A stretch of 64,000 nt of DNA, from assembly GCF_003097635.1 (NCBI RefSeq), contig NZ_QCZI01000001.1, positions 124,001 to 188,000 of the forward strand, read 5' to 3'. The DNA is from Flavobacterium psychrotolerans. Lineage in GTDB: Bacteria; Bacteroidota; Bacteroidia; Flavobacteriales; Flavobacteriaceae. Both the position numbers and the translations under genes were made by a program. Under the pieces are notes generated by a model. It saw only the letters and a program-made list of their open reading frames with translations. It was not told where the DNA came from and ran no database searches. Position 1 is the stretch's first letter. Each line of letters opens with the position of its first letter. Below are positions 6,342-52,509 of this stretch, one piece after another.

Positions 6342-8120
6342 CTACATTCTTTCCGGAACCTCAATCCCTAATAGTTGAAACGCCGATTTAATGGTATCAC
6401 TTACTTTTTTAGATAGCTGAACTCGAAATGTTTTTTTAATCAAATCTGCTTCCCCTAAAATAGAAACAGTTTGGTAAAATGAATTGTATTCTTTGACTAA
6501 GTCATAGGTATAATTTGCCAATAAAGCGGGACTATGATTTTGTGCAGCATTCTGAATTACTTCAGGGTACAATTCGATTTGTTTTATCAATTCTTTTTCT
6601 TTTTCGTGCACTTCGACTGCACTCAATGTGACATCAATATTAAAATCAACCTTTCTTAAAATCGACTGAATTCTTGCATAGGTATATTGAATGAAAGGCC
6701 CCGTATTTCCTGCAAAATCTACTGATTCTTCCGGATTAAAGAGGATTCTTTTTTTAGGATCCACTTTCAAAATATAATATTTCAATGCCCCTAACCCGAT
6801 GACCTTGTACAATTTTTCTTTTTCCTCCTTAGAATATTCTTCCAGTTTACCTAATTCTTCTGCTAATTGTTGTGCCGTTTTAGTCATGTCCTCCATCAAA
6901 TCATCCGCATCAACAACGGTTCCTTCACGAGATTTCATTTTACCGGAAGGCAAATCGACCATGCCGTAGGATAAATGAAATAGATTTTTAGACCAATCAA
7001 AGCCAAGCTTTTTCAATATTAAAAACAAAACTTTAAAATGGTAATCTTGTTCATTTCCTACCGTGTAAACCATCCCCCCAACATCAGGAAAATCCTTGAC
7101 ACGTTGAATGGCGGTTCCAATGTCTTGTGTCATGTAAACGGCAGTTCCGTCAGAGCGAAGTACAATTTTTCGATCCAAACCATCCTCCGTTAAATCAATC
7201 CAAACTGAACCGTCTGGATCTTTTTCAAAAACGCCTTTTTCCAGACCAATTTGCACTACGTCTTTTCCCAATAAATAAGTATTGCTCTCGTAATAATAAG
7301 TGTCAAAATCGACTCCAAGATTTCTATAAGTGATTTCAAATCCATCATAAACCCATTGGTTCATCGTTTTCCAGAGTTGCACCACTTTTTCATCTCCCGC
7401 TTCCCAATCTAAAAGCATTTTTTGGGCTTCGAGAATAATTGGAGCTTGTTTTTTGGCTTCCTCTTCTGTTTTCCCTTCAATAACTAATTGATTGATTTCT
7501 TCTTTATAGGCTTTATCAAAAGCAACATAATATTTCCCAACCAATTTATCCCCTTTTAAACCAGAGCTTTGCGGAGTTTCTCCGTTTCCAAATTTTTGCC
7601 AAGCGAGCATCGACTTACAAATATGAATTCCTCTATCATTAATGATTTGGGTCTTGTATACTTTTTTACCGGAAGCTTTTATAATTTCGGCAACGGAATA
7701 CCCTAAAAGATTGTTGCGAACATGTCCTAAATGCAACGGTTTGTTTGTGTTGGGCGAAGAATATTCAACCATTACCGCTTTATCATTTGGATTGGGAATT
7801 ACAAAACCAAATTGGGCATCATCTTTAATTTCATTGAAAAAACTCAAATAATAACTGTCCGAAATTACAATATTCAAAAATCCGGAAACTACATTGAAAC
7901 TTTTAACTTGCTCAACGTTTTCGACTAAAAAGCTTCCAATTTTATTTCCTAATTCCAGTGGATTGCTTTTGATTTGTTTCAGAAGCGGAAATAGTACCAT
8001 GGTAATATCTCCTTCAAATTCCTTACGGGTAGTTTGATATTCAATTCTTTCGATTGAAACATCAAATAGTACACGTATTGCATTTTTTATTTGCGGGGTA
8101 AGAATTTGAGAAAGAGACAT
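6342..8120 (-). CDS. argS: arginyl-tRNA synthetase
   Basis: A 592-residue class I aminoacyl-tRNA synthetase that charges tRNA-Arg. The HIGH-type signature is present as H-L-G-H after S-S-P-N-T-N-K-P near residue 128. The KMSKS loop is degenerate (G-K-M-K-S-R-E-G), as is common in ArgRS. The C-terminal helical anticodon-binding domain follows (F-I-Q-Y-T-Y-A-R-I-Q-S-I-L-R). The start at 8120 (MSLSQ) is preferred: the longer reading frame would run through the -7 promoter element at 8143-8150. The gene is monocistronic here. Confidence 0.95.
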   Translation of the reverse strand: MSLSQILTPQIKNAIRVLFDVSIERIEYQTTRKEFEGDITMVLFPLLKQIKSNPLELGNKIGSFLVENVEQVKSFNVVSGFLNIVISDSYYLSFFNEIKDDAQFGFVIPNPNDKAVMVEYSSPNTNKPLHLGHVRNNLLGYSVAEIIKASGKKVYKTQIINDRGIHICKSMLAWQKFGNGETPQSSGLKGDKLVGKYYVAFDKAYKEEINQLVIEGKTEEEAKKQAPIILEAQKMLLDWEAGDEKVVQLWKTMNQWVYDGFEITYRNLGVDFDTYYYESNTYLLGKDVVQIGLEKGVFEKDPDGSVWIDLTEDGLDRKIVLRSDGTAVYMTQDIGTAIQRVKDFPDVGGMVYTVGNEQDYHFKVLFLILKKLGFDWSKNLFHLSYGMVDLPSGKMKSREGTVVDADDLMEDMTKTAQQLAEELGKLEEYSKEEKEKLYKVIGLGALKYYILKVDPKKRILFNPEESVDFAGNTGPFIQYTYARIQSILRKVDFNIDVTLSAVEVHEKEKELIKQIELYPEVIQNAAQNHSPALLANYTYDLVKEYNSFYQTVSILGEADLIKKTFRVQLSKKVSDTIKSAFQLLGIEVPERM

Positions 8121-8142
8121 AGAATTATAGATTTTAAGTCTG

Positions 8143-8150
8143 CAAATATA
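8143..8150 (-). promoter_or_regulatory. -7 promoter element for argS
   Basis: The minus strand reads TATATTTG, matching the Bacteroidota TAnnTTTG consensus, 22 bases upstream of the chosen argS start. No clear -33 TTG is seen. Confidence 0.6.
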
Positions 8151-8455
8151 GGCATATCTATTGCATTTTAAAAATGGAAATATTTTTGAATAATTACAGA
8201 ACGCTAAAAGCATTTAACAATAACTTATTATATTAATCTAACAAGTTTGATATATTTGTCAAATATAAATGTATAACCTTTTGAACCACTATAATATTGA
8301 ATATGAATTCCTTGCAAGAAAATGTTTTTTTTGTAAGAATTTTACATATTTAAGTGCATAGAAGCGCATTTCTTCGATTTAATTTGCATTTAATCGATGT
8401 TTTTTTGTACATTGTTTTATTAAAGGATATCATATTATGATAATATTAAATTTTA

Positions 8456-26059: not shown

Positions 26060-26192
26060 TCAGCTAACGTCCGGTGGCTTGCGTCAGTGGCGTAAATCTT
26101 ACCGAACAATCGCAAATATAAACCAAACTTTGAGTTATCAGCATATTTTCTAAAGAAACACAGAATTAAGCCATTGTGGCAAACCGCTGTTA
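26060..26192. repeat. imperfect palindrome with AACGTCCGG / CCGCTGTT ends (attC-like)
   Basis: Arms AACGTCCGGTGGCTTGC (about 26065) and TGGCAAACCGCTGTT (about 26177) pair imperfectly, with inner GTCAGTGGC / GCCATTGTGG pieces. It precedes the lipoprotein gene and starts with GCTAACG. The same CTAAC layout is seen next to the VOC gene. No integron integrase is in the window. Confidence 0.4.
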
Positions 26193-26303
26193 TCCTCATT
26201 TTGTTACTGCCAGTTCCATTTTGCACTTAAAGTATTGTATTCATTGACTTTATAAAAATATACTATGCAATTTTAAGCAACAAAAAGCAACGAAATACTT
26301 GTT

Positions 26304-26428: not shown

Positions 26429-27646
26429 ATGGCATCAATTAAACTAATTTTAAGAACACATCAGGCAGACCAAACAGGACACAGCCCATTGTATATTCGA
26501 ATTATAAAAGATAGAAAAACGAAATTTATCACTGCTGGAGTGAAGCTCAAAGAGAACGAGTGGGATGAAACAAAGCAGAAAGTAAAGAAGAACCATCCAA
26601 ACAGTGCGAGGATGAATGCCTCATTATCTCAAAAGATTGCCGATGCTGAAGGTCAGGTTGCGGATATGGAACGCAAAGTAAAATCCATTTCAATCAGTAA
26701 ATTAAAAGATGCTATCAAGGGAAAAGTTGTGCCAAACTTTTTTGAATATGCTTATGCTCGATGTGAAAAAATAAAAGGCAGCGTATCATTTGGAACTTAT
26801 AAAAACTATACGCTTTACACCAAGAAGTTTGAGAATTATGTTGGTAGTAGGGATGTTTATTTCGATGATATTACGGTTACAGTTCTCAAAGATTATATGG
26901 CTCATATGGGAAATATTTTGAAAAACGGAGCAACTACGCAACGCTATTCTATTATGATTTTGGCGATAATGTTCAAGGAAGCAATCAAAGAAGATATCAT
27001 TCCGGAATATATGTACCCATTTAACAAACTGACATTGAGAAAAGATACTGAAAAAAGAGTATTCCTAAACAAAGACCAAATCGAGATATTAACCAATTTA
27101 GAACTAAAGGAAGGACGAAAAGCTGATTTATGGCGTGATTTATTCCTTTTCTCAATTTACGCAGGAGGATTAAGATTTAGTGATGTTATCGAGCTGCAAT
27201 ACACTAATTACAATAGCGAAGAACAAAGAATAAAAAAAGTAATCCGCAAAACAGGAAGATTACACCAGTTTAAAATCGGAAAGGTTGCGATTGATATTTT
27301 GAATAAATACATCAAGGAAGATGCACAACACGATGATTATATTTTTCCGATTATAACCGATAAAGCAACTTACAAAAAGAGCGAAGAAATGCGTTATTTT
27401 ATATCTCAAAGAGAAAATCATTCCGCCAATTTCCAACTCAACCGAATGGGTAAAATAATGAAACTGCCGTTTCCACTTTCGTTCCATTTATCAAGACACA
27501 GTTTTGCAACCAATGCGTTAAATAACGGAATGAGAATTGAGCACGTTTCTAAATTAATGGATCACACAGACATCAGCACAACGCAGATATATGCTAAAAT
27601 CATCAGTGAAGAACTGGACAAAGCGGTAGACAATTATATTTTTTAA
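26429..27646 (+). CDS. tyrosine-type site-specific integrase
   Basis: A 405-residue tyrosine recombinase. Residues 1-100 form the Bacteroidota-type arm-binding domain (R-T-H-Q-A-D-Q-T-G-H-S-P-L-Y-I-R), about 110-205 the SAM-like core-binding domain, and 210-405 the catalytic domain. Catalytic residues are visible: R in G-G-L-R-F-S-D (about 249), K in R-K-T-G-R (about 275), H-L-S-R-H (H about 353, R about 356), H in L-M-D-H-T-D and the nucleophile Y in Q-I-Y-A-K (about 388). It should insert and excise the island to its right. It lies at the left edge next to the paired boxes, the usual place for an integrase. Confidence 0.93.
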   Translation: MASIKLILRTHQADQTGHSPLYIRIIKDRKTKFITAGVKLKENEWDETKQKVKKNHPNSARMNASLSQKIADAEGQVADMERKVKSISISKLKDAIKGKVVPNFFEYAYARCEKIKGSVSFGTYKNYTLYTKKFENYVGSRDVYFDDITVTVLKDYMAHMGNILKNGATTQRYSIMILAIMFKEAIKEDIIPEYMYPFNKLTLRKDTEKRVFLNKDQIEILTNLELKEGRKADLWRDLFLFSIYAGGLRFSDVIELQYTNYNSEEQRIKKVIRKTGRLHQFKIGKVAIDILNKYIKEDAQHDDYIFPIITDKATYKKSEEMRYFISQRENHSANFQLNRMGKIMKLPFPLSFHLSRHSFATNALNNGMRIEHVSKLMDHTDISTTQIYAKIISEELDKAVDNYIF

Positions 27647-27703
27647 ATATCGTGTTAAGTGCCTATTTTATTGACCTTAAACGATTGTTAATAACTTCAA
27701 ATA

Positions 27704-27730
27704 AAATCCTTTAACAAGGATTTTTTTTAT
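27704..27730 (+). terminator. terminator after the integrase gene
   Basis: Stem AAATCCTT / AAGGATTT with a TAAC loop, followed by a long T run. Confidence 0.8.
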
Positions 27731-27916
27731 TTTATAACTTTACCACAGAGTAAACAAGTAATTTTTAAAGCATTCGAAACGAGTGATAAACGAACTCTAG
27801 TAGAAAACACTAGGACTTCCAAAAAGCAACCAATTTAAAACCGCTTTTAATTACCTTTCAATACTAAATGAATACCAAAAAAAACATACTAAAATTTGAA
27901 TTCAAAGGATCAAAAT

Positions 27917-28804
27917 ATGCAAACAGCTCCGTTTGTAGAATTATTGGCAGTGCCACAAGCACTAGCCAAAAATCCTTTATTTGATATAATCGTTGAAGAA
28001 AAAGTCAATGTTCAAAGTTATTGCAATGCCTTAATTGCAAAAACATTAGAACTCAAACAATCTCAATTCCCTGCATTTATCGATTATCAATTCAACCTGG
28101 TAAAAAACCCAGAGGTATGGATTTGTAAACTCGAAAAACTATTAGCCAACAATGAAGCTTTTTTCAGTTCCAAAACGGCAATGAGTAGATACAATAAGTT
28201 GTACTTTTTAATCGAGAAAAAACGAACAGAGCTGCAATCTTTAAGAGTAGTTGACACGAAAACAAAAACTCCAAAAAGACTTATTAACGCTAATTCTGAT
28301 GATAGATATTTTTCGTATTTTGAAGTCAAAAATCATATTGAAACACTAACAGACTTTACCGAAAAACTTATTTATTTAACCCAAGAAGCTTTTGCGTATA
28401 AACAAGCTGATAAATTTTCAATTAATACAACTTTACAAGCGTATGACGAACAATGTAACCATCAAATTGAGCATTTACAAACTCTACGCAAAATGCGTTC
28501 TGAATATGATAAAGAACAACAAGAAAAATTAGACAATGTAAAATTGGCAAAAGCACCAACTTTAAAAATCCGTTTGAATGGTCCAATCAATATTTTAACT
28601 GATGCTTACAAACAAATGATGAATGATGTAAAACCAAATGGCAAACCTTACATTGAGTATAAAATAAAAGAAATTGCAAAATTCATTTGTGATAATTATT
28701 TAGACGAAAATGGAAATGAACTTTCAATGCTTACAATTCAAACATATTTATCGCCAACTCGAACAGATAAGAACCCAAATAATGATTGGAAAATAAAACT
28801 ATAG
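27917..28804 (+). CDS. island protein of unknown function upstream of the HTH and primase genes
   Basis: A 295-residue hydrophilic, helix-rich protein (many K, E, Q and N) with a C-terminal segment resembling a winged helix: I-A-K-F-I-C-D-N-Y-L-D-E-N-G-N-E-L-S-M-L-T-I-Q-T then Y-L-S-P-T-R-T-D-K. Proteins with this ending commonly precede an HTH protein and a VirE-type gene in Bacteroidota elements, so a role in replication or regulation of the island is plausible but not shown. I use the ATG at 27917; an in-frame TTG at 27896 is the alternative. Family not recognised with certainty. Confidence 0.6.
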   Translation: MQTAPFVELLAVPQALAKNPLFDIIVEEKVNVQSYCNALIAKTLELKQSQFPAFIDYQFNLVKNPEVWICKLEKLLANNEAFFSSKTAMSRYNKLYFLIEKKRTELQSLRVVDTKTKTPKRLINANSDDRYFSYFEVKNHIETLTDFTEKLIYLTQEAFAYKQADKFSINTTLQAYDEQCNHQIEHLQTLRKMRSEYDKEQQEKLDNVKLAKAPTLKIRLNGPINILTDAYKQMMNDVKPNGKPYIEYKIKEIAKFICDNYLDENGNELSMLTIQTYLSPTRTDKNPNNDWKIKL

Positions 28805-28867
28805 TCCGATTTTTTCTAAAATTAACATTTCAACTTCTCAATATTCATAAGGTCTAACAAACTTTTT

Positions 28868-28907
28868 AGTCCGATAAGACCAAATAAGTCTAATCGGACT
28901 TTTTTTG
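28868..28907. terminator. long bidirectional terminator or attenuator
   Basis: AGTCCGATaAGAC (28868-28880) pairs with GTCTaATCGGACT (28888-28900) around a CAAATAA loop, then a run of T; AAAA precedes it. A partial copy of the arm (AGTCCGATTTTTT) lies just after the stop at 28803. Confidence 0.85.
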
Positions 28908-28948
28908 ATTTCGTCCATTTGCACCATAACAATTTAAAACTTTTAAAA

Positions 28949-29230
28949 ATGGATGCAATTATCTTCACAAAAGACCAGTTCACAGATCTAATGACAAAAT
29001 TAGACACTATTCAATCTCAAATCTCTATCAAGGCAGACCCAAAGAAAGAAACCTTTTTAGACAATCAAGAATTCCTTTTACTGATGAAAATTTCAAAACG
29101 TACAGCTCAAACCTGGAGAGACGAAGGTAAAATTTCATTCAGTCAAGTGGGAAACAAAATCTACTACAAACTTTCTGATGTTGAAAAACTCCTTACGGAA
29201 CATTACAACAAATCTTTTAAAGGAAGATAA
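28949..29230 (+). CDS. small helix-turn-helix DNA-binding protein (excisionase/MerR-like)
   Basis: A 93-residue protein. A coiled N-terminus is followed by an HTH_17-type domain: L-D-N-Q-E-F-L-L-L-M-K-I-S-K-R-T-A-Q-T-W-R-D-E-G, then I-S-F-S-Q-V-G-N-K-I-Y-Y-K-L-S-D-V-E-K-L-L, the usual excisionase/MerR helix-turn-helix plus wing. It could act as a recombination directionality factor or a repressor of the island. I start at 28949 (MDAII): ten further upstream codons fall next to the terminator hairpin and are rich in His, Asn and Leu. Confidence 0.8.
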   Translation: MDAIIFTKDQFTDLMTKLDTIQSQISIKADPKKETFLDNQEFLLLMKISKRTAQTWRDEGKISFSQVGNKIYYKLSDVEKLLTEHYNKSFKGR

Positions 29231-29231
29231 A

Positions 29232-29324
29232 ATGAAAGAGTGTAACGGAACTTGCGAAATTTGTGATTGCAAGCCAATCACAAAAGGGAAACTTCTAATC
29301 TTGAAAATAAATTTTAAAACCTAA
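29232..29324 (+). CDS. tiny cysteine-rich ORF
   Basis: A 30-codon ORF with four cysteines in the pattern C-x3-C-x2-C-x-C, starting 1 base after the HTH stop and ending 3 bases before the primase start, so it could be translated by coupling. The spacing suits a zinc-binding knuckle. It is too short to judge from the sequence and could be chance. Confidence 0.35.
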   Translation: MKECNGTCEICDCKPITKGKLLILKINFKT

Positions 29325-29327
29325 AAA

Positions 29328-31421
29328 ATGGTAACAGTCTTTAAAAACTTCAACGAAGTCATAGAACACAAAACAATTTCAACAATTTTAGAAGAAATCA
29401 AAACTGGAAAGTACAGACCGGGCATAGTTTACTTACGAAAGTCACTTACCGAAAACAAAACAGAAGCCTACAACAAAGCCAAAAAATCACTTCCAGCATT
29501 CACGCCTTCGGGAAAGTTTGTTGGAGGTCGAAAATTGGAATTCCTAGCCGAATATTCAAATTGTATCATTTTGGACATTGATAAATTAAGTAAAACCGAT
29601 TTGCAAAATGCTTCGCATTTGGCCAATCAAAGTGAGTTTACTTATGCCAGTTTCATCAGTCCATCAGGAAACGGATTAAAAATTTTAGTCAAAATTAATT
29701 CAGACAAAGCCAATCACAAAGAAGCATTTTTATTGGTTCAAGCACATTATGAGGCTATTTTAAAACTGGAAATAGACAAATCGGGCAAAGATGTAACAAG
29801 GTTATGTTTTTATTCTTTTGATGAAAATTTATATCTCAATGAGAACGCTTCCGTTTTTGCTACATCAATTCCAGTCGAAATTCCCGAGCTTGTCATCCCG
29901 AGCGCAGTCGAGGGAACTCAACTAGAACCATCAACAGATTACGATGCCATTTACAATCATTGCATAAAATTCACCGAAAAAAAAGTGCAATTCGTGAATG
30001 GTAGCCGAAACGTATTCGTACACCAATTAGCCTGTAACCTAAATCGCAAAGGAGTTTCACTTCACGAAGCTTTGGGATATATTTTAACTGATTTTGGTTA
30101 TGATGAAAAAGAAGTAACACAAGCAGTAAATAGTGCTTACGGAAACATTCACGAGTTTGGAAACGATAAAAGAGAAAAGCCAACTAAGAAAAAAGATGTC
30201 ACTCTGAGCTTGTCGAAGAGCTTTGATGATAGCGAAGACGACGAAGACAAACCAAAACCAACCCAAATAGACCGTTTAGAACTGTTTTTATCAAACAAAT
30301 ATGTATTTCGGCATAATATAGTATCAGGTAAATTAGAGTTCCAATATTTCGGTAAAAAGAAGTGGAATGTAATGAATGATTTTATTGAAAATTCAATGCT
30401 ACGGGAGTGTTTAAAAGGACGAATTAAAACCAATTTATCTTCATTACGAAACTTATTGTATTCTGATTTTTGTGAGCTGTTCAATCCATTTGAAGATTAC
30501 TTTTTCAATTTACCTACTTATGATGAAAAGACCGATTACATTACCGAATTAGCCAACACCATAACCACTACAAAACAAGAACTTTGGCAGCAATGTTTCA
30601 AAAAATGGTTAGTGGCTATGGTTGGTTGCGTTCTCGATGAAAAGGTAATAAATCACACCGTTATTGTCTTTAGCGGCAAACAAGGATTAGGTAAAACAAC
30701 GTGGGTTGAAAAACTCGTTCCCAAGCAATTGAAAGAATATTTATTTTCCGGAACCATCAACCCAAATAATAAAGATACTTTGGTTCAACTAGCGGAATGT
30801 ATGTTAATCAACTTGGACGAACTCGAAAATTTAAATCGTTCCGAAATTGGATCACTAAAAGAAATCATTACAAAAACGCAAATCAGAATGCGAAAAGCTT
30901 ACGGACACAACAACGAAACAATGCCCAGAAGGGCATCGTTTGCCGGAAGTGTCAATACCGCACAGTTTTTAAATGATAGTACAGGAAGCAGAAGGTTTCT
31001 TTGTTTTGAATTGGAAGGCATAAAATACCAGCACAATGTAGATATTAATATGGCATTTTCACAAGCTTTATTTCTTTTCAAAAGTGGTTTCAGGTTTTGG
31101 TTTGACCAGGAAGAAATAAAATCAATAACCGAGAATAATGAACAATACCAACTCCGAAGTCCAGAAGAAGAATTGCTTTTAACGTGGTTTGAACCTTGCG
31201 AGGTAGAAAATGCGCAAACGTTTTTAAATGCTTCGCAAATAGCTTCAAAATTAGTCGATAGAACAAAAATCAACATTAATGATAATACAATTAACAAGCT
31301 GGGGAAAGCACTAAAAAAACATAATTTTATAAGACTTAAAAAAAATGGATTATTTGTTTATGCAGTTAAAGAAAACAGCTATGAAGAAGTAGATTATAGC
31401 AACAGAGAAATTCAAGAATAA
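29328..31421 (+). CDS. VirE/VapE-like primase-helicase protein
   Basis: A 697-residue protein. Residues of about 40-190 match the BT4734-type N-terminal domain that goes with VirE in Bacteroidota (I-L-D-I-D-K-L...F-I-S-P-S-G-N-G-L-K). Residues of about 390-620 are a P-loop ATPase of the VapE type: Walker A S-G-K-Q-G-L-G-K-T-T near 448, Walker B-like L-I-N-L-D-E-L-E near 490, then G-S-V-N-T-A-Q-F-L. Such proteins are superfamily-3-like helicases often linked to a primase and serve replication of mobile elements. Two dispersed repeats are read in frame inside a linker (residues 189-196 and 291-298). Replication initiation is an inference. Confidence 0.82.
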   Translation: MVTVFKNFNEVIEHKTISTILEEIKTGKYRPGIVYLRKSLTENKTEAYNKAKKSLPAFTPSGKFVGGRKLEFLAEYSNCIILDIDKLSKTDLQNASHLANQSEFTYASFISPSGNGLKILVKINSDKANHKEAFLLVQAHYEAILKLEIDKSGKDVTRLCFYSFDENLYLNENASVFATSIPVEIPELVIPSAVEGTQLEPSTDYDAIYNHCIKFTEKKVQFVNGSRNVFVHQLACNLNRKGVSLHEALGYILTDFGYDEKEVTQAVNSAYGNIHEFGNDKREKPTKKKDVTLSLSKSFDDSEDDEDKPKPTQIDRLELFLSNKYVFRHNIVSGKLEFQYFGKKKWNVMNDFIENSMLRECLKGRIKTNLSSLRNLLYSDFCELFNPFEDYFFNLPTYDEKTDYITELANTITTTKQELWQQCFKKWLVAMVGCVLDEKVINHTVIVFSGKQGLGKTTWVEKLVPKQLKEYLFSGTINPNNKDTLVQLAECMLINLDELENLNRSEIGSLKEIITKTQIRMRKAYGHNNETMPRRASFAGSVNTAQFLNDSTGSRRFLCFELEGIKYQHNVDINMAFSQALFLFKSGFRFWFDQEEIKSITENNEQYQLRSPEEELLLTWFEPCEVENAQTFLNASQIASKLVDRTKININDNTINKLGKALKKHNFIRLKKNGLFVYAVKENSYEEVDYSNREIQE
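29892..29915 (+). repeat. dispersed repeat GTCATCCCGAGCG-type inside the VirE-like gene
   Basis: Starts GTCATCCCGAGCGCAGTCGA and ends GGGA, a repeat sequence I recognise as widespread in Bacteroidota. Here it is translated as V-I-P-S-A-V-E-G in the linker of the primase-helicase, without breaking the frame. Confidence 0.7.
30198..30221 (+). repeat. dispersed repeat GTCACTCTGAGC-type inside the VirE-like gene
   Basis: GTCACTCTGAGCTTGTCGAA followed by GAGC; another common repeat type, translated as V-T-L-S-L-S-K-S. Again in frame and in a low-complexity acidic linker. Confidence 0.65.
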
Positions 31422-47293: not shown

Positions 47294-47324
47294 CAAATAT
47301 ATAAAATGTTTTAATATAAAACAA
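47294..47324 (-). promoter_or_regulatory. promoter of the Panacea toxin-antitoxin operon
   Basis: Minus-strand TTG (47322-47324), 20-base spacer, TATATTTG (47294-47301), 26 bases before the start codon. A palindromic operator lies in the spacer. Confidence 0.7.
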
Positions 47325-47345
47325 AATTATGTTTTAATTTAAAAC
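47308..47345. promoter_or_regulatory. twin operator palindromes for the antitoxin
   Basis: GTTTTAATATAAAAC (47308-47322) and GTTTTAATTTAAAAC (47331-47345) differ by one base and are 23 bases apart centre to centre. The first lies between the -33 and -7 boxes, the second just upstream. They are likely binding sites of the XRE domain for autoregulation. Confidence 0.75.
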
Positions 47346-47437
47346 AATAGTTTAATCAACTCATAATCTTTAAAAAAAGGATTAGTGCTAAAAAGGACGT
47401 TTTACATTTCAGTTGCCACTCCTTTGCCAACGCTCCA

Positions 47438-47505
47438 AAAAAAATTACTGGCACAGTTTTTAGAAAAAACACGTACGCTTCGCAACTTGCGCCAGTAATT
47501 TTTTT
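47438..47505. repeat. long hairpin H1 of the structured intergenic region
   Basis: Perfect 15-bp arms AAAAAAATTACTGGC (47438-47452) and GCCAGTAATTTTTTT (47491-47505), loop 38 bases. Confidence 0.75.
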
Positions 47506-47517
47506 CCCCAAGCTGTG

Positions 47518-47604
47518 TTACATAATTGAGTATTATAGTTCATCACAAAGCGTTTATATTGTTTTTTTGGTTTTTGCAATGAAGCTATAATATCATTTAT
47601 GTAA
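47518..47604. repeat. long hairpin H2 of the structured intergenic region
   Basis: Arms of 24 bases (47518-47541 and 47581-47604) starting TTACATAA and ending TTATGTAA, with one mismatch and two single-base bulges. Confidence 0.65.
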
Positions 47605-47629
47605 AACAGCCGCTCCTGCCAACGCGCTT

Positions 47630-47709
47630 GCCAGTGGCTCCAGGACAACATTTTTTGCAGCTCCCATCGCATCACCCAGCTACAAAAAACACCGTCCTTC
47701 GCCACTGTC
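47630..47709. repeat. long hairpin H3 of the structured intergenic region
   Basis: Arms of 32-33 bases (47630-47662, 47678-47709) around a 15-base loop. Five arm differences are transitions, all giving G-U pairs on the minus strand. Confidence 0.7.
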
Positions 47710-47822
47710 TTCAACAACGTTCACCATTTCATCAGAAACTTTACGGTTATACTTACTTTTAAGAACGTTTTAGGTAACTGTTTTTAGCAACTTTACACCT
47801 AAATCGGTAGTGTTTGCATTGC

Positions 47823-47905
47823 TTTTGTAAGTGTTGTAAATCGCTTATCAACTCTATTTCTAACATTCACAATTTCGGATTAAGCAATTTACAACACCCA
47901 CAAAA
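47823..47905 (-). repeat. hairpin H4, paralogous with H6
   Basis: 25-base arms (47823-47847, 47881-47905). Three differences, all G-U on the minus strand. The loop shares CAACT...ATTTCTAA...TTCACAATTTC with H6, and the preceding GTGTTTGCATTG matches the sequence before H6. Confidence 0.8.
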
Positions 47906-47919
47906 CCAAAAAAGAGCCA

Positions 47920-48109
47920 GTAAGAGTATCTTTTTTTATTTGCCAGAAACACAAAATAAATTGATTTTCCATCGCCTTGATAACTAGCGTTTTAAGTAAA
48001 TTATTTTCTTAAAAATTCAAATCTAACTTTTTAAGAAGTGTTGGCATCAAGCCGATAGTAAAATCAATCAGAAACTTCTCAGTAAGCAAATAAAAAAAGA
48101 CACACTTAC
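47920..48109 (-). repeat. compound hairpin H5 of the structured intergenic region
   Basis: Outer arms of 24 bases (47920-47943, 48086-48109; GTAAG...ATTTGC). An inner stem is formed by ATTGATTTTCCATCG / ATAGTAAAATCAAT, and an innermost CTTAAAAA / TTTTTAAG. Confidence 0.7.
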
Positions 48110-48153
48110 CTGCGCTACTGCCTCATCGCACTAGGAAAAAGTGTTTTCATTGT

Positions 48154-48235
48154 TTTTGTAAGTGTAATAAATTGCTTTACAACTTCATTTCTAAACTTCA
48201 CAATTTCAATAAAGCAATTTATTACACCCACAAAA
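48154..48235 (-). repeat. hairpin H6, paralogous with H4
   Basis: 26-base arms (48154-48179, 48210-48235) with two differences, both G-U on the minus strand. Closely related to H4 in stem, loop and flanks. Confidence 0.85.
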
Positions 48236-48246
48236 TCAAACCGTAA

Positions 48247-48332
48247 GAAAGAGTATTGAATTTTAAAGCAGAAAAATGATTGGAATAGATTTTATATTTC
48301 TTTTTCCTACTTTAAAATTCAATACCCTTTCC
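48247..48332 (-). repeat. long hairpin H7 of the structured intergenic region
   Basis: Arms of about 30 bases (48247-48276, 48301-48332; AAAGAGTATTGAATTTTAAA in the first) with one bulge and two transitions, both G-U on the minus strand. Confidence 0.75.
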
Positions 48333-48433
48333 GAAGAACATCAGCTATCAAATCAACCTTTTTTGGTTCCGTTTTCATTAAGAACATCTCGTTCAAAAGG
48401 AAAATAAAAAAATAAATAAAAGAAAGTAAAGGT

Positions 48434-48601
48434 AAGTTCCGGTTTCAAGAAAAAAAAGTTCAAGCCCTTCGGGTTTTAGAAAAAATCTCCACCCATACCG
48501 TTTCGCAACAACATTTCATTCCGATTTCACGCCCACATTTCCGATGATGTATCGGGTAGTATTTTTTCTAAAAAAACTTGTTTTTCTTGAAACCTCCACT
48601 T
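48434..48601. repeat. giant hairpin H8 of the structured intergenic region
   Basis: Arms of up to about 60 bases (48434-48500, 48550-48601), GGTTTCAAGAAAA pairing with TTTTTCTTGAAACC, then TTTTAGAAAAAAT with ATTTTTTCTAAAA. A side bulge holds CCCTTCGGG, a stable UUCG-type tetraloop. Confidence 0.65.
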
Positions 48602-48746
48602 GAAGTACGACTTTCTTTTTTTTCTTTTTTTCTTTTAAAAATTTTATGTATGGCTTGTGAAATGGAACGAAGTGGAATTCACGAAAACCAAAAAAACAAA
48701 CTGAACTATTGAGTAATGCAAGGCACATCATCTTAAAACGGAACGT

Positions 48747-49169
48747 ATGATGAATTTTATAATCAAAACCCACAAAGTGGGAACAATTTACACAAAACCC
48801 CATTTATTTGTACTTAACAAAGGGATGAACAGCGGTAAGCCCCAAAAAGAGCCATTTACTAACAGTTTTGTAGTCATTTTTCAAAACAAAGAAGATTGCG
48901 AAAGTCTTTATTTTATTGCTTTTAGTTTATGGAAAACAAAGTTTTGGCATCAGCATTTAGTGGGTTCGGTTATTTCATTTTTACGCTTACCCGATTTCAA
49001 AAAAGAATTTAGCCCAAAAGCCAGTTTAATGATGGTGGAACACGAGCAGCACCAAAAAAATGTTGCAGCTCTCAAACTTCTGGAGAAAAAAGAAAAGCAA
49101 TTTCACGAAAATTTGCATCTTATCAGTGACATCCGCAGAGCCATTTTATACCGCTATTGCAGAAAATAA
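48747..49169 (+). CDS. DUF6943-like protein
   Basis: A 140-residue protein: M-M-N-F-I-I-K-T-H-K-V-G-T-I-Y-T-K-P-H-L-F-V-L-N-K-G-M-N-S-G-K-P, with a central F-W-H-Q-H-L-V-G-S-V-I-S-F and C-terminal basic helices (H-L-I-S-D-I-R-R-A-I-L-Y-R). I place it, from memory, in DUF6943, a Bacteroidota family of unknown function common in mobile elements. It lacks a signal or membrane span. It is divergent from the hairpin array. Confidence 0.7.
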   Translation: MMNFIIKTHKVGTIYTKPHLFVLNKGMNSGKPQKEPFTNSFVVIFQNKEDCESLYFIAFSLWKTKFWHQHLVGSVISFLRLPDFKKEFSPKASLMMVEHEQHQKNVAALKLLEKKEKQFHENLHLISDIRRAILYRYCRK

Positions 49170-49354: not shown

Positions 49355-49597
49355 TTAAGGGTTAGTTTTCGGTTCTTCTTCCGATTTTACAGCAGTTTGA
49401 GAAACTACTGAAATAATACTACCTCCAAGAACCAAGTAACCAGCAGCCGAAACCAGTCCAACAGGTAAGGCAATAGGCGAAGCGATGATAATTCCACCTA
49501 CAGAAGCCAAAGCAATCCCAACAGTTCTCAAAATTTTAAACCATTTTGGAGTTGGTGCCAAGGTTCTTTCTACTAAATTCATTTTGTTATTTTTCAT
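49355..49597 (-). CDS. small protein with two membrane segments
   Basis: An 80-residue protein: basic N-terminus (W-F-K-I-L-R-T), then two hydrophobic stretches (about 26-45 and 46-67, G-I-A-L-A-S-V-G-G-I-I-I-A-S-P and V-S-A-A-G-Y-L-V-L-G-G-S-I-I-S), and an acidic tail. The size and hairpin-like topology fit a holin or a pore-forming membrane protein, but no family is recognised. It overlaps the stop of the 87-residue gene by 11 bases if the first ATG is used; MNLVE (49582) is an alternative start. Confidence 0.65.
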   Translation of the reverse strand: MKNNKMNLVERTLAPTPKWFKILRTVGIALASVGGIIIASPIALPVGLVSAAGYLVLGGSIISVVSQTAVKSEEEPKTNP

Positions 49598-49850
49598 AAT
49601 CTTGATTTTTATAAATTGATAGTTCTAAATTGTGTACTCTTTTTTCGATGTATTCTACTTTTTGGTTCAGTAAGTCATTACCACTTTTAAACTCGGTTTT
49701 GATGATTAAAGCCATCGTTTTAACTTCAACCAAATCTTTTTCCATACTCTTAAAATCGGTGTGTAATTGCTTGATAAAATAAGCCACAATCGAGAGTAAC
49801 AAAGTGATAAGTGTTCCAAAAAGTGTAGCGATGATGTTGATGTTTTCCAT
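49587..49850 (-). CDS. small membrane-anchored coiled-coil protein
   Basis: An 87-residue protein with an N-terminal membrane helix (about residues 5-27; I-I-A-T-L-F-G-T-L-I-T-L-L-L-S-I-V) and a long amphipathic helix (about 30-80) that looks coiled-coil (D-F-K-S-M-E-K-D-L-V-E-V-K, then V-E-Y-I-E-K-R-V-H-N-L-E). This layout is common in phage lysis cassettes (holin or spanin-like). It starts 12 bases after the DUF5675 stop and overlaps the next gene. Confidence 0.65.
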   Translation of the reverse strand: MENINIIATLFGTLITLLLSIVAYFIKQLHTDFKSMEKDLVEVKTMALIIKTEFKSGNDLLNQKVEYIEKRVHNLELSIYKNQDYEK

Positions 49851-49862
49851 TTTTTGGACTTT

Positions 49863-50315
49863 TTAGAATTGAAAATTATTTTCAATGATCATTGTATTGT
49901 TTTCAACTTTCGCCAATGCTACTAATTTTGGATAAATCATTTTGTAAGCTGCAACACTTTGAGTAACTTGAAAATTGCCATCAACAAATTGAAAACCAAA
50001 ACCACAAAGCGGACAGCCGGCAGTTTCTTTAATAGTATTTCCGGTATGGATATACACAAAACTGAAATTAGGCAAACCAGTAATTTCAATCATTCCTTCG
50101 TGAAACTTTCCAAATGCTTTTTTGTAATCCACATTTTTAGCTCCGTGAGTGTTCAACTTTAAACTAAATACTCCTTTTGGAATGGCAGTTTGAGAAGGGA
50201 TTTTCACTTCTCTAATTTTGTCCTCCAACAAGTAACATTGAAAGATGCCATTAATGTACAACTGGCTTAATGTGCTTTCCTTTCCTTGCGCTACTCTTAT
50301 TATTTTGCTTTCCAT
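49863..50315 (-). CDS. DUF5675-family protein
   Basis: A 150-residue protein starting at 50315 (M-E-S-K-I-I-R-V-A); the upstream ATG would put the start inside the terminator of the preceding gene. Marks of DUF5675: E-S-T-L-S-Q-L-Y-I-N-G near the start, L-E-D-K-I-R-E near 38, and V-Y-I-H-T-G-N-T-x-x-x-T-A-G-C near 100-112. The conserved H...G-C pair resembles the H/C pair of L,D-transpeptidases, so an action on cell wall is possible but unproven. DUF5675 occurs in phages and Bacteroidota mobile elements. Confidence 0.78.
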   Translation of the reverse strand: MESKIIRVAQGKESTLSQLYINGIFQCYLLEDKIREVKIPSQTAIPKGVFSLKLNTHGAKNVDYKKAFGKFHEGMIEITGLPNFSFVYIHTGNTIKETAGCPLCGFGFQFVDGNFQVTQSVAAYKMIYPKLVALAKVENNTMIIENNFQF

Positions 50316-50342
50316 AGTTCTGATAGATTTGAGATTAAACAA

Positions 50343-50371
50343 AAAATCCCTCACTTTTGGCGAGGGATTTT
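50343..50371. terminator. bidirectional terminator between the MARQKG-type gene and DUF5675
   Basis: AAAATCCCTC / GAGGGATTTT with a nine-base loop; T run on the minus strand. It separates a highly expressed-looking first gene from the following genes. Confidence 0.85.
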
Positions 50372-50383
50372 CGGAAGGTTTTT

Positions 50384-51187
50384 CTAAAAAGCATCCTCAA
50401 CTTTCAAGCAGTTACCACTGGAAAACAAGTAGTAATTTGGTCCCACTTGTTGGTAGAACTCAATTCCGATGCACTGTAAAACAGTTGTGTTTACCGTTGG
50501 AATTGCTCCGTTAGGTAAAGTTGCAACAATTGTAGTAGCAGGAACTGGAGCGTACAAATCCAAGAAAGGACTGTATTGAATGTCGTTTACTTCATTCAAA
50601 GCTGCATCCATTGGATCATAGCTGTTTGTGGTAGCGTTGTATTCAAAATCACTTACTACTGAAAGTGAAGTAATCAAACGGAAATGAGTTGCTCCAGATG
50701 GAGCATTAACCAAATTCGCTGGGTTAAAAGCATCAACTACAAATTCGCCAGTTTCTCTATCAACTCCGTGAGTTAATGAAAACGGAGCGTTGAAAATTCC
50801 ATTGAAAGAAGAGTTTTTGTCAAACTCAAAACCTTTTAAGTAATTTCTTTGTGTTGTGATTTCAATTTTTCTGTAACCTCTCGCTTCGGTTTGGTCTTCC
50901 AAGTTGATTTTCTTCATAATTGAAGTTAATCTTCCAGTTACTTGGCTGTCCGCCATTTGTTTCATTACTTGAGATAAACCAGTTCGAACAGATTTTCCAG
51001 CCTTGGCACAAGCACCAAATTCGTTCATATTCTCACGAGTTCTCTCAAATTCAGGAGCAGTTAACACTTGGTCACCAGTTGGTCCGCCAACCATTCCAGC
51101 GAAGTAGCCTTCCTGTCCTTTGATTTTGAAGTGTCGGATATCTCCAAGAGTTCCAACATACTTAATAACACCTTTTTGTCTTGCCAT
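50384..51187 (-). CDS. Bacteroidota mobile-region protein of the MARQKG(V/I)IK type
   Basis: A 267-residue soluble protein starting M-A-R-Q-K-G-V-I-K-Y-V-G-T-L-G-D (51187; the longer frame adds hydrophobic codons before it). It contains G-G-P-T-G-D-Q-V-L-T-A-P-E-F-E-R-T-R-E-N near residue 38, then F-G-A-C-A-K-A-G-K-S, a middle coil and a beta-rich C-terminal half. I remember similar proteins (R-T-R-E-N-x-x-E-F-G) as frequent, often multi-copy, hypothetical proteins of Bacteroidota found with DUF5675. The compact, structured sequence could be a capsid, tail or effector protein; none is established. Confidence 0.7.
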   Translation of the reverse strand: MARQKGVIKYVGTLGDIRHFKIKGQEGYFAGMVGGPTGDQVLTAPEFERTRENMNEFGACAKAGKSVRTGLSQVMKQMADSQVTGRLTSIMKKINLEDQTEARGYRKIEITTQRNYLKGFEFDKNSSFNGIFNAPFSLTHGVDRETGEFVVDAFNPANLVNAPSGATHFRLITSLSVVSDFEYNATTNSYDPMDAALNEVNDIQYSPFLDLYAPVPATTIVATLPNGAIPTVNTTVLQCIGIEFYQQVGPNYYLFSSGNCLKVEDAF

Positions 51188-51246
51188 TTTTTTAAGATTT
51201 AAAAAGTTAATAATTAGATTAAATTCATAAGACAAATTTCAATGAT

Positions 51247-51254
51247 TATCTTTG
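51247..51254 (+). promoter_or_regulatory. -7 promoter element of the nuclease gene
   Basis: TATCTTTG, 30 bases before the ATG at 51285. It excludes the longer reading frame with a TTG start at 51252. Confidence 0.6.
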
Positions 51255-51284
51255 ATTATCAATAACTTAAAACACTGTAAATCA

Positions 51285-51776
51285 ATGCAATACAACGCAA
51301 AAGCACCGTACATAGTGGAAGCCCATTGGCAAATTGAAGAAGTCCTAGATGGTGATAGCATAATCATTTGCAATCGTTTCACTGGAATGAAAAAAGAAAT
51401 CCGTCTTTATGGTTTAGATGCACCAGAAGTAAAACTAAATAGGAAGATGAAAGAAGACGAGGAGAAAAGCAGTTTACCTGCCCAATTATTGCTCCAATTT
51501 GGTTTGCAATCCTTGCACTTCGTTTTGTCGGTTGCACCACCTAAAACGGTTGTAACTATCGTTACGGAACAGGAGAATTATTATGACTACTGGAACAGGC
51601 AATTAGGATATGTAATATTGCCAGGAGGAGAATGTTTGAATGATTTGCTTTTGATCAATGGGTATGCAAAAGCAACCCAAAATTATTATTGTGGCCGATT
51701 AGCGGAATACCAAGCAATGAACCGCCAAGCGCAGCTTAACAGTACTGGTATTTATAGCTTTGTAAAAAGTTTTTGA
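51285..51776 (+). CDS. thermonuclease (SNase)-family protein
   Basis: A 163-residue nuclease. The staphylococcal-nuclease active site is visible: V-L-D-G-D near residue 20, then R40 and D45/E48 in I-R-L-Y-G-L-D-A-P-E, spaced as R35, D40 and E43 of the reference enzyme; Y-W-N-R-Q-L-G-Y-V supplies the second arginine near 105. SNase enzymes cut single- and double-stranded DNA and RNA with Ca2+. No signal peptide is seen, so it may act inside the cell or be released by lysis. It is the last gene before the right-hand boxes. Confidence 0.88.
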   Translation: MQYNAKAPYIVEAHWQIEEVLDGDSIIICNRFTGMKKEIRLYGLDAPEVKLNRKMKEDEEKSSLPAQLLLQFGLQSLHFVLSVAPPKTVVTIVTEQENYYDYWNRQLGYVILPGGECLNDLLLINGYAKATQNYYCGRLAEYQAMNRQAQLNSTGIYSFVKSF

Positions 51777-51797: not shown

Positions 51798-51867
51798 TAC
51801 AGGGATTTTAATTTTTGTGAATGTCAATAAAATATATACTTCACAAGCGTATTAAGACTAAACGGCT

Positions 51868-52509
51868 GTTATAGGCTGCCTTACTTTTTTGCAGGAACAT
51901 CAATCATTACTAAATTCCCACCTTTTTCAGACGAAGGAATTTCCATTTTCACAAATGCTTTATTCCACTCAATTTGAGTAACTGCATCTTTATGAATTTC
52001 GTTGCCATTTTCAAATATTGCAATAACAAGCCAAGGATTAGTATTCATATAGACTTTCAGTTCTATGTCTTTTAATTTTTCTTTTAAATGATTAAGTGTT
52101 TCGAGTTTATTAGGTTCTAATAAAAAAGCCATTATTCCGACACGCAAGCCAAAATTTCGAATATCAATGATAATATCATTTTTATTTGATTTAGTACTAA
52201 CACTTCCAAAGTTTTGGTTTTCAAACACCAATTTTCCGATGCTAATTACAAATAATTGATGGAGACCTACGTATTCCGTTAGTTTTAGTCCTTTACCTAA
52301 TTTTATCATTCTTTCACCTCTTTTATGATGTGAAATTCCGCTTAAATGTCTTGAGGTTTTGTCTGGTTCTGCAAGATTAATTTCTCCGTAATAAATATCA
52401 CCTTTGGGAACTTGTAAAAAATACATGAACTCTTTTGTCCATGTACCGTCAGTTGCTAATATTTTGAATTTTGTTTTTCCCATACTGTTTTTCAAAGGTT
52501 GCCTATAAC
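51868..52509. repeat. inverted repeat bracketing a single gene
   Basis: GTTATAGGC (51868-51876) and GCCTATAAC (52501-52509), extending to 13 bp with two mismatches, lie within about 20 bases of the ends of the 204-codon reading frame. This resembles a one-gene cassette. Confidence 0.65.
51881..52483 (-). CDS. hypothetical protein in an inverted-repeat cassette
   Basis: About 200 residues, soluble. N-terminal strands (F-K-I-L-A-T-D-G-T-W-T-K-E), a middle H-H-K-R-G-E-R-M-I-K-L-G-K-G-L, then a hydrophobic-strand region with G-L-R-V-G-I-M-A-F, and a beta-rich C-terminus (N-P-W-L-V-I-A-I-F-E-N-G). No domain recognised. I use ATG 52483; the alternative start is TTG at 52495. The gene stands alone between the inverted GTTATAGGC repeats. 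Confidence 0.55.
   Translation of the reverse strand: MGKTKFKILATDGTWTKEFMYFLQVPKGDIYYGEINLAEPDKTSRHLSGISHHKRGERMIKLGKGLKLTEYVGLHQLFVISIGKLVFENQNFGSVSTKSNKNDIIIDIRNFGLRVGIMAFLLEPNKLETLNHLKEKLKDIELKVYMNTNPWLVIAIFENGNEIHKDAVTQIEWNKAFVKMEIPSSEKGGNLVMIDVPAKK

What the first reader, a model, noticed from the sequence alone, without database searches (positions are those of the whole stretch)
47438..48601. Eight consecutive long hairpins in non-coding DNA
About 1.2 kb without a gene, almost fully covered by eight imperfect hairpins with arms of 15-60 bases. In H3-H7, all 13 arm-to-arm transitions that I counted become G-U pairs on the minus strand and none the other way, as expected for a conserved minus-strand RNA. 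It is comparable in size with large structured RNAs of phages and mobile elements. Other explanations are a transfer or replication origin, or stacked palindromic inserts.
Basis: partly seen in the sequence, partly recalled or inferred. Interest (0 to 1): 0.75.

Follow-up and report, generated by a model that had tools for sequence, protein, structure and literature searches.

The report
Large structured RNA of mobile element
The eight hairpins are real and form a conserved, one-strand-specific structure inside an apparently undescribed kind of mobile DNA element of Bacteroidota, most likely made as a 1.2-kb non-coding RNA, with one hairpin built from two copies of what looks like the host's chromosome-resolution (dif) site.

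Summary
Observation confirmed: eight arm pairs cover 398 nt of 47430-48640 (200 dinucleotide shuffles: mean 21, max 96). In a strand-neutral test, transition mismatches in the arms are minus-strand G.U 10:0 in the window, 666:76 over 81 related copies, 17:15 in the rest of the window. Two hairpins show strong covariation. The region is a module of a 25.7-kb integrative element bounded by a 13-bp direct repeat (26181, 51860): tyrosine integrase, VapE-type primase-helicase, defence cargo, hairpins, DUF6943 (target-recognition-domain fold), lysis-like genes, an unnamed 'MARQKG' protein, a nuclease. 111 of 398 genus genomes match the DNA; H8 and H2 are detected in 23 and 16 of 36 more distant loci. 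A terminator-like hairpin often ends the module on the minus strand, so an RNA is favoured. H2 is an inverted pair of dif-like sites, as in the folded attP of CTXphi, which keeps a single-stranded-DNA reading open. No Rfam family reaches its threshold there. Transcription and function are untested.

The parts
26181..26193 (.). left attachment core AAACCGCTGTTAT (12 of 13 identical to the right one)
   Evidence: equivalent 13-bp repeats at both ends of 6 related elements (5 identical, 1 with one mismatch)
26429..27646 (+). tyrosine integrase (PF00589, PF17293, PF13102) at the left end of the element
   Evidence: close homologue at the same place in 6 of 7 SNase-type hairpin copies whose left side was followed
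27896..28804 (+). conserved 302-aa protein of unknown function
29328..31421 (+). BT4734-like/VapE primase-helicase
   Evidence: PF05272, PF08800
31936..47267 (.). cargo: type I restriction-modification (HsdM, HsdS, HsdR), two GmrSD_N proteins, an 809-aa protein without a match, SocA/Panacea-domain protein with a 115-aa partner ORF
   Evidence: other genes in this place in other copies
47430..47512 (-). H1: terminator-like hairpin, 3' end of the proposed RNA
47506..47612 (-). H2: hairpin made of two inverted dif-like sites (47517-47542 plus, 47580-47605 minus), also in other genera
47618..47720 (-). H3
47805..47912 (-). H4 (duplicate of H6)
47909..48120 (-). H5: two-part long hairpin with strong covariation
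48136..48243 (-). H6
48240..48336 (-). H7: 31-bp hairpin with strong covariation
48398..48640 (-). H8: 5' domain of the proposed RNA; also found without H1-H7
48747..49169 (+). DUF6943 protein, predicted fold of a restriction-enzyme target-recognition domain, divergent from the proposed RNA
   Evidence: PF22105
49312..49335 (-). terminator-like hairpin (T-run on the minus strand) between the lysis-like genes and DUF6943
   Evidence: read from the sequence
49355..50354 (-). small membrane-like protein (49355-49597), holin-like protein (49587-49850), DUF5675 protein (49863-50354)
   Evidence: 'membrane-like' and 'holin-like' are my reading of size and sequence
50384..51235 (-). MARQKG protein, no Pfam or NCBIfam match and no clear fold match
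51252..51776 (+). staphylococcal-nuclease-like protein at the right end
   Evidence: PF00565; homologue in 70 of the 84 loci (its printed 71 counts my reference sequence)
51860..51872 (.). right attachment core AAACGGCTGTTAT

Best explanation
The hairpins are one conserved module of an integrative mobile element (window 26181-51872). SHOWN by computation: the module is homologous over its length in many Flavobacterium copies, changes in it keep the minus-strand fold, and H8 and H2 are detectable in other genera. INFERRED: it is transcribed leftwards from the gap between DUF6943 and H8, folds into a chain of long hairpins and stops at H1, giving a non-coding RNA of about 1.2 kb (about 0.8 kb in most of the distant loci where both ends were placed). 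INFERRED: it is made when the element is active and serves its life cycle, as a scaffold or as a substrate of the divergently encoded DUF6943, whose fold is that of a DNA-recognition domain. INFERRED: the element is a phage-satellite-like island (integrase, VapE primase, defence cargo, lysis-like genes, no virion gene recognised).
For: Strand-neutral arm test 666:76 over 81 copies, 10:0 in the window, 17:15 background; 62:15 in 35 more distant loci (shorter arms allowed). H7 (27 rows): 97.1% of cells paired, 15 of 31 pairs changed on both sides; H5 (53 rows): 95.5%, 21 of 47; 0 of 500 shuffles reach the observed value on any measure, and slides collapse pairing. Terminator-like hairpin within 140 nt after H2 on the minus strand in 45 of 67 nearer loci and 7 of 14 distant ones, against 1 of 67 and 0 of 14 in an interior control stretch. 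H8 in 23 and H2 in 16 of 36 distant loci. Attachment repeats and integrase at the ends. Precedent: the most abundant transcripts of phage ICP1 (~800 nt) and of its satellite PLE are predicted non-coding (PMC7567579, passages).
Against: No transcript data. A strict Bacteroidota-type promoter is upstream of H8 in only 1 of 89 copies; a relaxed one in 26 of 89, with short spacing and mostly overlapping the start of DUF6943. G.T wobble is tolerated in single-stranded DNA too, and both strands fold well below their shuffles. In 8 of 35 distant loci the minus-strand energy is less than 2 standard deviations below 8 shuffles. H1 is also a terminator for cargo read on the other strand. H2 resembles a DNA recombination site. 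Fold relatives of DUF6943 bind DNA. 22 of 67 nearer and 7 of 14 distant loci lack a recognised terminator.
Confidence: 0.55

Rival explanations
1. The minus strand acts as folded single-stranded DNA: the hairpin chain is a replication, conversion or recombination region, and H2 is a XerC/XerD site folded from two dif-like halves, like attP(+) of CTXphi.
For: H2 arms carry TTACATAA, spacer, TTATAG on both sides, inverted, with unequal spacers (7 and 6 in the window, 5 and 7 in others); 94 inverted pairs and 38 single hits in 2.68 Mb of partly overlapping loci; one chromosomal match with at most 1 mismatch in 9 of 13 genomes (with 2 mismatches the reversed control hits about as often), with G-C skew lower on the right than on the left of it in 5 of 5 genomes sampled, noisily. 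dif-flanked ssDNA prophages are reported for Flavobacterium (PMC9719478, passages) and inverted dif-like pairs for CTXphi-like phages, with an extra dif-like site in three Bacteroidetes microvirus proviruses (PMC3091885, passages). One-strand wobble bias fits ssDNA as well.
Against: No HUH replicase or relaxase among the element proteins scanned; the element's attachment core next to its own integrase is another sequence; terminator-like end. A symmetric dif pattern found nothing in 12 genomes.
Confidence: 0.2
2. Cargo-capture site: H1/H2 is where new cargo enters the island, and decayed H1-H2 pieces inside cargo mark earlier insertions.
For: Genes next to H1 differ from copy to copy; extra partial H1-H2 copies lie 0.3-13 kb apart in L057, L058, L059, L060, L117, L144, L166.
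Against: Breakpoints differ from copy to copy, most pieces are decayed, and dif-like sites were not found at the other cargo ends; homologous recombination between repeats would do the same. It does not explain H3-H8.
Confidence: 0.1
3. Stacked palindromic inserts or transcription insulators without a function of the folded strand.
For: H4/H6 duplication, three copies of the H4-H6 unit in L157 and stand-alone H8.
Against: Same order in full-length relatives, compensatory changes and one-strand wobble bias are not expected without selection on the fold.
Confidence: 0.1
4. Transfer origin of a conjugative or mobilisable element.
For: Structured DNA in a mobile element.
Against: No relaxase among the element proteins scanned.
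Confidence: 0.05

Closest known systems
GOLLD and ROOL RNAs
   Same: Large structured non-coding RNAs of phages and prophages (GOLLD often over 800 nt), function unknown (PMC12286853, passages)
   Different: No match to an Rfam model at its threshold in the region or in 6 related loci; a chain of long hairpins; no tRNA in the window; in an integrase/VapE island
ICP1 ~800-nt ncRNA and PLE satellite IIR transcript
   Same: Non-coding RNAs of a phage and of its satellite; the ICP1 one lies next to the lysis cluster (PMC7567579, passages)
   Different: No sequence comparison was made; here covariation and strand polarity, not expression, are the evidence
CTXphi attP (+) hairpin
   Same: Inverted pair of dif-like sites that can fold on one strand (CTXphi from PMC3091885 passages)
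   Different: Only H2 of eight hairpins; the element has its own integrase and another attachment core; no ssDNA form known
Phage satellites (PICI, P4, PLE; recalled)
   Same: Tyrosine integrase, VapE-type primase, defence cargo, attachment repeats; some relatives sit at tRNA genes
   Different: No packaging or capsid-remodelling gene recognised; carries MARQKG and SNase; helper unknown

Membership tests
GOLLD / ROOL / other Rfam RNAs | match to the Rfam covariance model at the curated score | tested here: not met
   cmscan of the window: only three Flavo-1 RNAs, all outside the element; none in 6 related loci; at E <= 1 in 47300-48800, 22 matches, all far below gathering scores (best 29.2 bits against 73, a microRNA model)
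GOLLD / ROOL / other Rfam RNAs | expressed as a long RNA | not testable with these tools
   no transcript data
structured non-coding RNA | compensatory base changes beyond controls | tested here: met
   H7 and H5; H2 has 6 of 23 pairs changed on both sides; H1, H3, H4, H6, H8 not counted
structured non-coding RNA | wobble pairs on the proposed strand | tested here: met
   666:76; 62:15
structured non-coding RNA | promoter and terminator | tested here: inconclusive
   terminator-like in 45/67 and 7/14 loci; promoter strict 1/89, relaxed 26/89
CTXphi-type folded Xer attachment site | inverted pair of dif-like sites | tested here: met
CTXphi-type folded Xer attachment site | integration at the chromosomal dif | tested here: not met
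   the 13-bp direct repeats at the element's ends are another sequence
CTXphi-type folded Xer attachment site | single-stranded DNA stage | not testable with these tools
   none
integrative element with tyrosine integrase | integrase at one end and direct repeats at both ends | tested here: met
   7 elements; repeats identical in 5, 12 of 13 in 2
phage satellite | dependence on a helper phage for packaging | not testable with these tools
   none
conjugative or mobilisable element (oriT) | relaxase | tested here: not met
   no relaxase among the element proteins scanned with Pfam, PADLOC or NCBIfam; HsdS and HsdR only with PADLOC, and not every small ORF was scanned

The most novel reading that the evidence does not exclude
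A satellite-like island carries a one-strand-folded region in which a composite XerC/XerD site (H2) forms from two inverted, individually imperfect dif-like sites; the island would use the host chromosome-resolution recombinases on single-stranded (or cruciform) DNA for dimer resolution, capture of defence cargo or a second integration route, with the TRD-fold protein DUF6943 recognising the hairpins.
Probability: 0.18. Interest if true: 0.88.

Novelty: new variant of a known kind. Interest (0 to 1): 0.72.

Why it matters
Large structured RNAs of phages and satellites are an open problem: their function is unknown. This would add a Bacteroidota family with dozens of alignable copies, a simple genetic neighbourhood and a candidate protein partner, in a genus with laboratory strains. 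It also points to an apparently undescribed, widespread defence-carrying integrative element, and to a dif-like composite hairpin that makes the RNA-versus-ssDNA question directly testable.

Tried and rejected
Phage and plasmid collections: no match to the hairpin DNA, to DUF6943 in plasmids or to MARQKG in phages. Viral contigs: one contig with MARQKG, three with DUF6943 relatives. An integron attC reading of the right end (GTTRRRY-like flank, recalled motif) was dropped when the 13-bp repeat with the left end beside the integrase was found. In scripts and notes I labelled the MARQKG protein 'DUF6266a/b' from memory; Pfam gives no hit even at E 5, so that label is wrong and is not used here. 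MARQKG model (pLDDT 83): no PDB match at E <= 0.001, VIA Z below 5; a known fold is not excluded. The tRNA 3'-end of L039 was not found a second time in the assembly with up to 3 mismatches. The right end of the window element gave only one strong match in the own genome. Copies where an integrase follows MARQKG I read as tandem neighbours: of four copies with the shorter MARQKG variant followed to 40 kb (L122, L129, L135, L136) all four have an integrase of that kind 20-40 kb to the left, two of them also one to the right. Direct-repeat search by exact words over the window flanks did not list the attachment repeat, because its longest exact run is below 10 nt.

Rows left out before counts: H5 alignment used 53 of 75 listed copies (5 reverse-strand palindrome hits, 17 left out for length); H7 used 27 of 36 (9 reverse-strand); H2 used 10 nearer and 13 of 14 distant. 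One search used the 81 of 101 records with a DUF6943 start. One search left out 7 of 60 loci as too short. One search allowed arms of 12, of 14. One search left out 4 of 85 loci as too short.

Literature: eight searches showed no description of this element or RNA in their listings; papers were read only as passages.

Full report
What is there. In window 47430-48640 eight inverted repeats cover 398 nt, against a mean of 21 and a maximum of 96 in 200 dinucleotide shuffles. The minus strand folds to -405.8 kcal/mol and the plus strand to -309.8; both are about 15 standard deviations below their shuffles, so energy alone does not pick a strand. The arms do. I seeded arms with Watson-Crick matches only and extended them without gaps, which favours neither strand. 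Among mismatches that are transitions, the window has 10 that are G.U on the minus strand and 0 the other way; 81 related copies give 666:76 and the rest of the window 17:15. Copies are related, so 666 is not a count of events. In 35 more distant loci, most of them outside Flavobacterium, it is 62:15 in total, not in every locus. The base composition of the window copy would give a ratio near 1.5 (my estimate from the counts).

Relatives. Full-length copies keep the order of hairpins; others lack or duplicate some. Covariation is strong where I counted it: H7 on 27 rows has 15 of 31 pairs changed on both sides and 97.1% of cells paired; H5 on 53 rows has 21 of 47 and 95.5%. On every measure 0 of 500 shuffles reach the observed value, and sliding one arm by 1-3 columns drops pairing to 39-64%. 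The structures came from the same alignments, which favours them over their slid versions. H1, H3, H4, H6 and H8 were not counted this way. In the distant loci the fold excess is weaker: in 8 of 35 the minus-strand energy is less than 2 standard deviations below 8 shuffles.

The element. To the left lie cargo genes that differ from copy to copy; to the right a recurring set: DUF6943, a small membrane-like protein, a holin-like protein, DUF5675, the MARQKG protein and an SNase-like protein. At 26429-31421 the window has a tyrosine integrase, a conserved 302-aa protein and a BT4734/VapE primase-helicase. Close homologues of this trio lie left of the hairpins in 6 of the 7 SNase-type hairpin copies whose left side I followed; the seventh (L046/L284) has only remote primase and integrase matches. 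A 13-bp direct repeat stands before the integrase and after the SNase: identical in 5 of 7 elements, 12 of 13 in the window and in one other. The window element is thus 25,692 bp with type I restriction-modification, GmrSD-like and Panacea-domain cargo. Some relatives sit at tRNA genes: a tRNA lies close behind the SNase in L039, L070, L075, L161, L205, L227, L237 and L241, the only 8 of 60 loci scanned that hold a tRNA. The nearest named record is Flavobacterium franklandianum (95% MARQKG identity; records very near the window's own genome may be hidden). That the element is a phage satellite is an inference. In one phage contig a DUF6943 relative lies between genes I read as terminase and portal (the names are my reading).

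DUF6943. Its predicted fold (pLDDT 90.9) matches target-recognition domains of restriction enzymes: Foldseek E 5.8e-3 at best; VIA Z 8.3 for 7eew (3.6 A, 133 residues); of the ten best rows eight are restriction-modification specificity subunits or methyltransferases and two are Esub1, whose nature I did not check. Among viral models the best hit is annotated 'sigma-70 like' (E 4.3e-4), followed mainly by restriction specificity and methyltransferase proteins. Z near 8 alone can be a common arrangement; the uniform list and full-length cover make it more credible. Such domains bind DNA, which speaks neither for nor against an RNA partner.

RNA or single-stranded DNA. For RNA: a hairpin followed by a T-run on the minus strand within 140 nt after H2 in 45 of 67 nearer loci and 7 of 14 distant ones, against 1 and 0 in an interior control; H8 at one end and H2 at the other are detected in 23 and 16 of 36 distant loci, with a span of 0.76-0.79 kb in 7 of the 9 where both were placed and 1.1-1.2 kb in 2. 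Against or open: no convincing promoter. For DNA: H2 is an inverted pair of dif-like sites. The same sequence form occurs with at most one mismatch once in each of 9 of 13 genomes searched, while a symmetric dif pattern found nothing in 12. G-C skew is lower on the right than on the left of the site in 5 of 5 genomes sampled, noisily; this is consistent with the chromosomal dif but not proof. H2 also covaries outside the dif-like cores. Flavobacterium ssDNA prophages flanked by dif sites are in print (PMC9719478, passages), and CTXphi-like phages carry inverted dif-like sites used on single-stranded DNA (PMC3091885, passages). I give RNA 0.55 and single-stranded DNA 0.2.

Comparison. It works most like the large non-coding RNAs of phages and satellites (PMC12286853, passages; PMC7567579, passages) but matches none of the Rfam models at threshold. 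Eight full-text searches of open-licence papers listed no description of the element or the RNA; subscription papers were not searched.

Noticed in passing
window 47506-47612 (H2): Two inverted dif-like sites with unequal spacers form this hairpin; 13 distant loci, 12 of them outside Flavobacterium by record title, align with it.
   Followed up: partly
L160, L157: Two facing MARQKG elements in L160, and three copies of the H4-H6 unit in L157.
   Followed up: no
L281 (G107:C27), L278 (G364:C1): Elements seem to occur in tandem: in L281 a MARQKG end is followed by an integrase; in L278 a tRNA-Ser-like 3' end (my reading) precedes the integrase.
   Followed up: partly
L249 (viral contig) 7962-8408: A DUF6943 relative lies between genes that look like phage terminase and portal.
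   Followed up: no
window 15125, 23865, 59189: Three Flavo-1 RNAs (Rfam RF01705) outside the element.
   Followed up: no
L248: A viral-collection contig where a MARQKG element follows what look like Mu-like head genes (my reading).
   Followed up: no
L051, 1088 to 10 bases left of the block: Cargo includes what looks like a broken Cas9 start next to H1 (my reading of the sequence).
   Followed up: no
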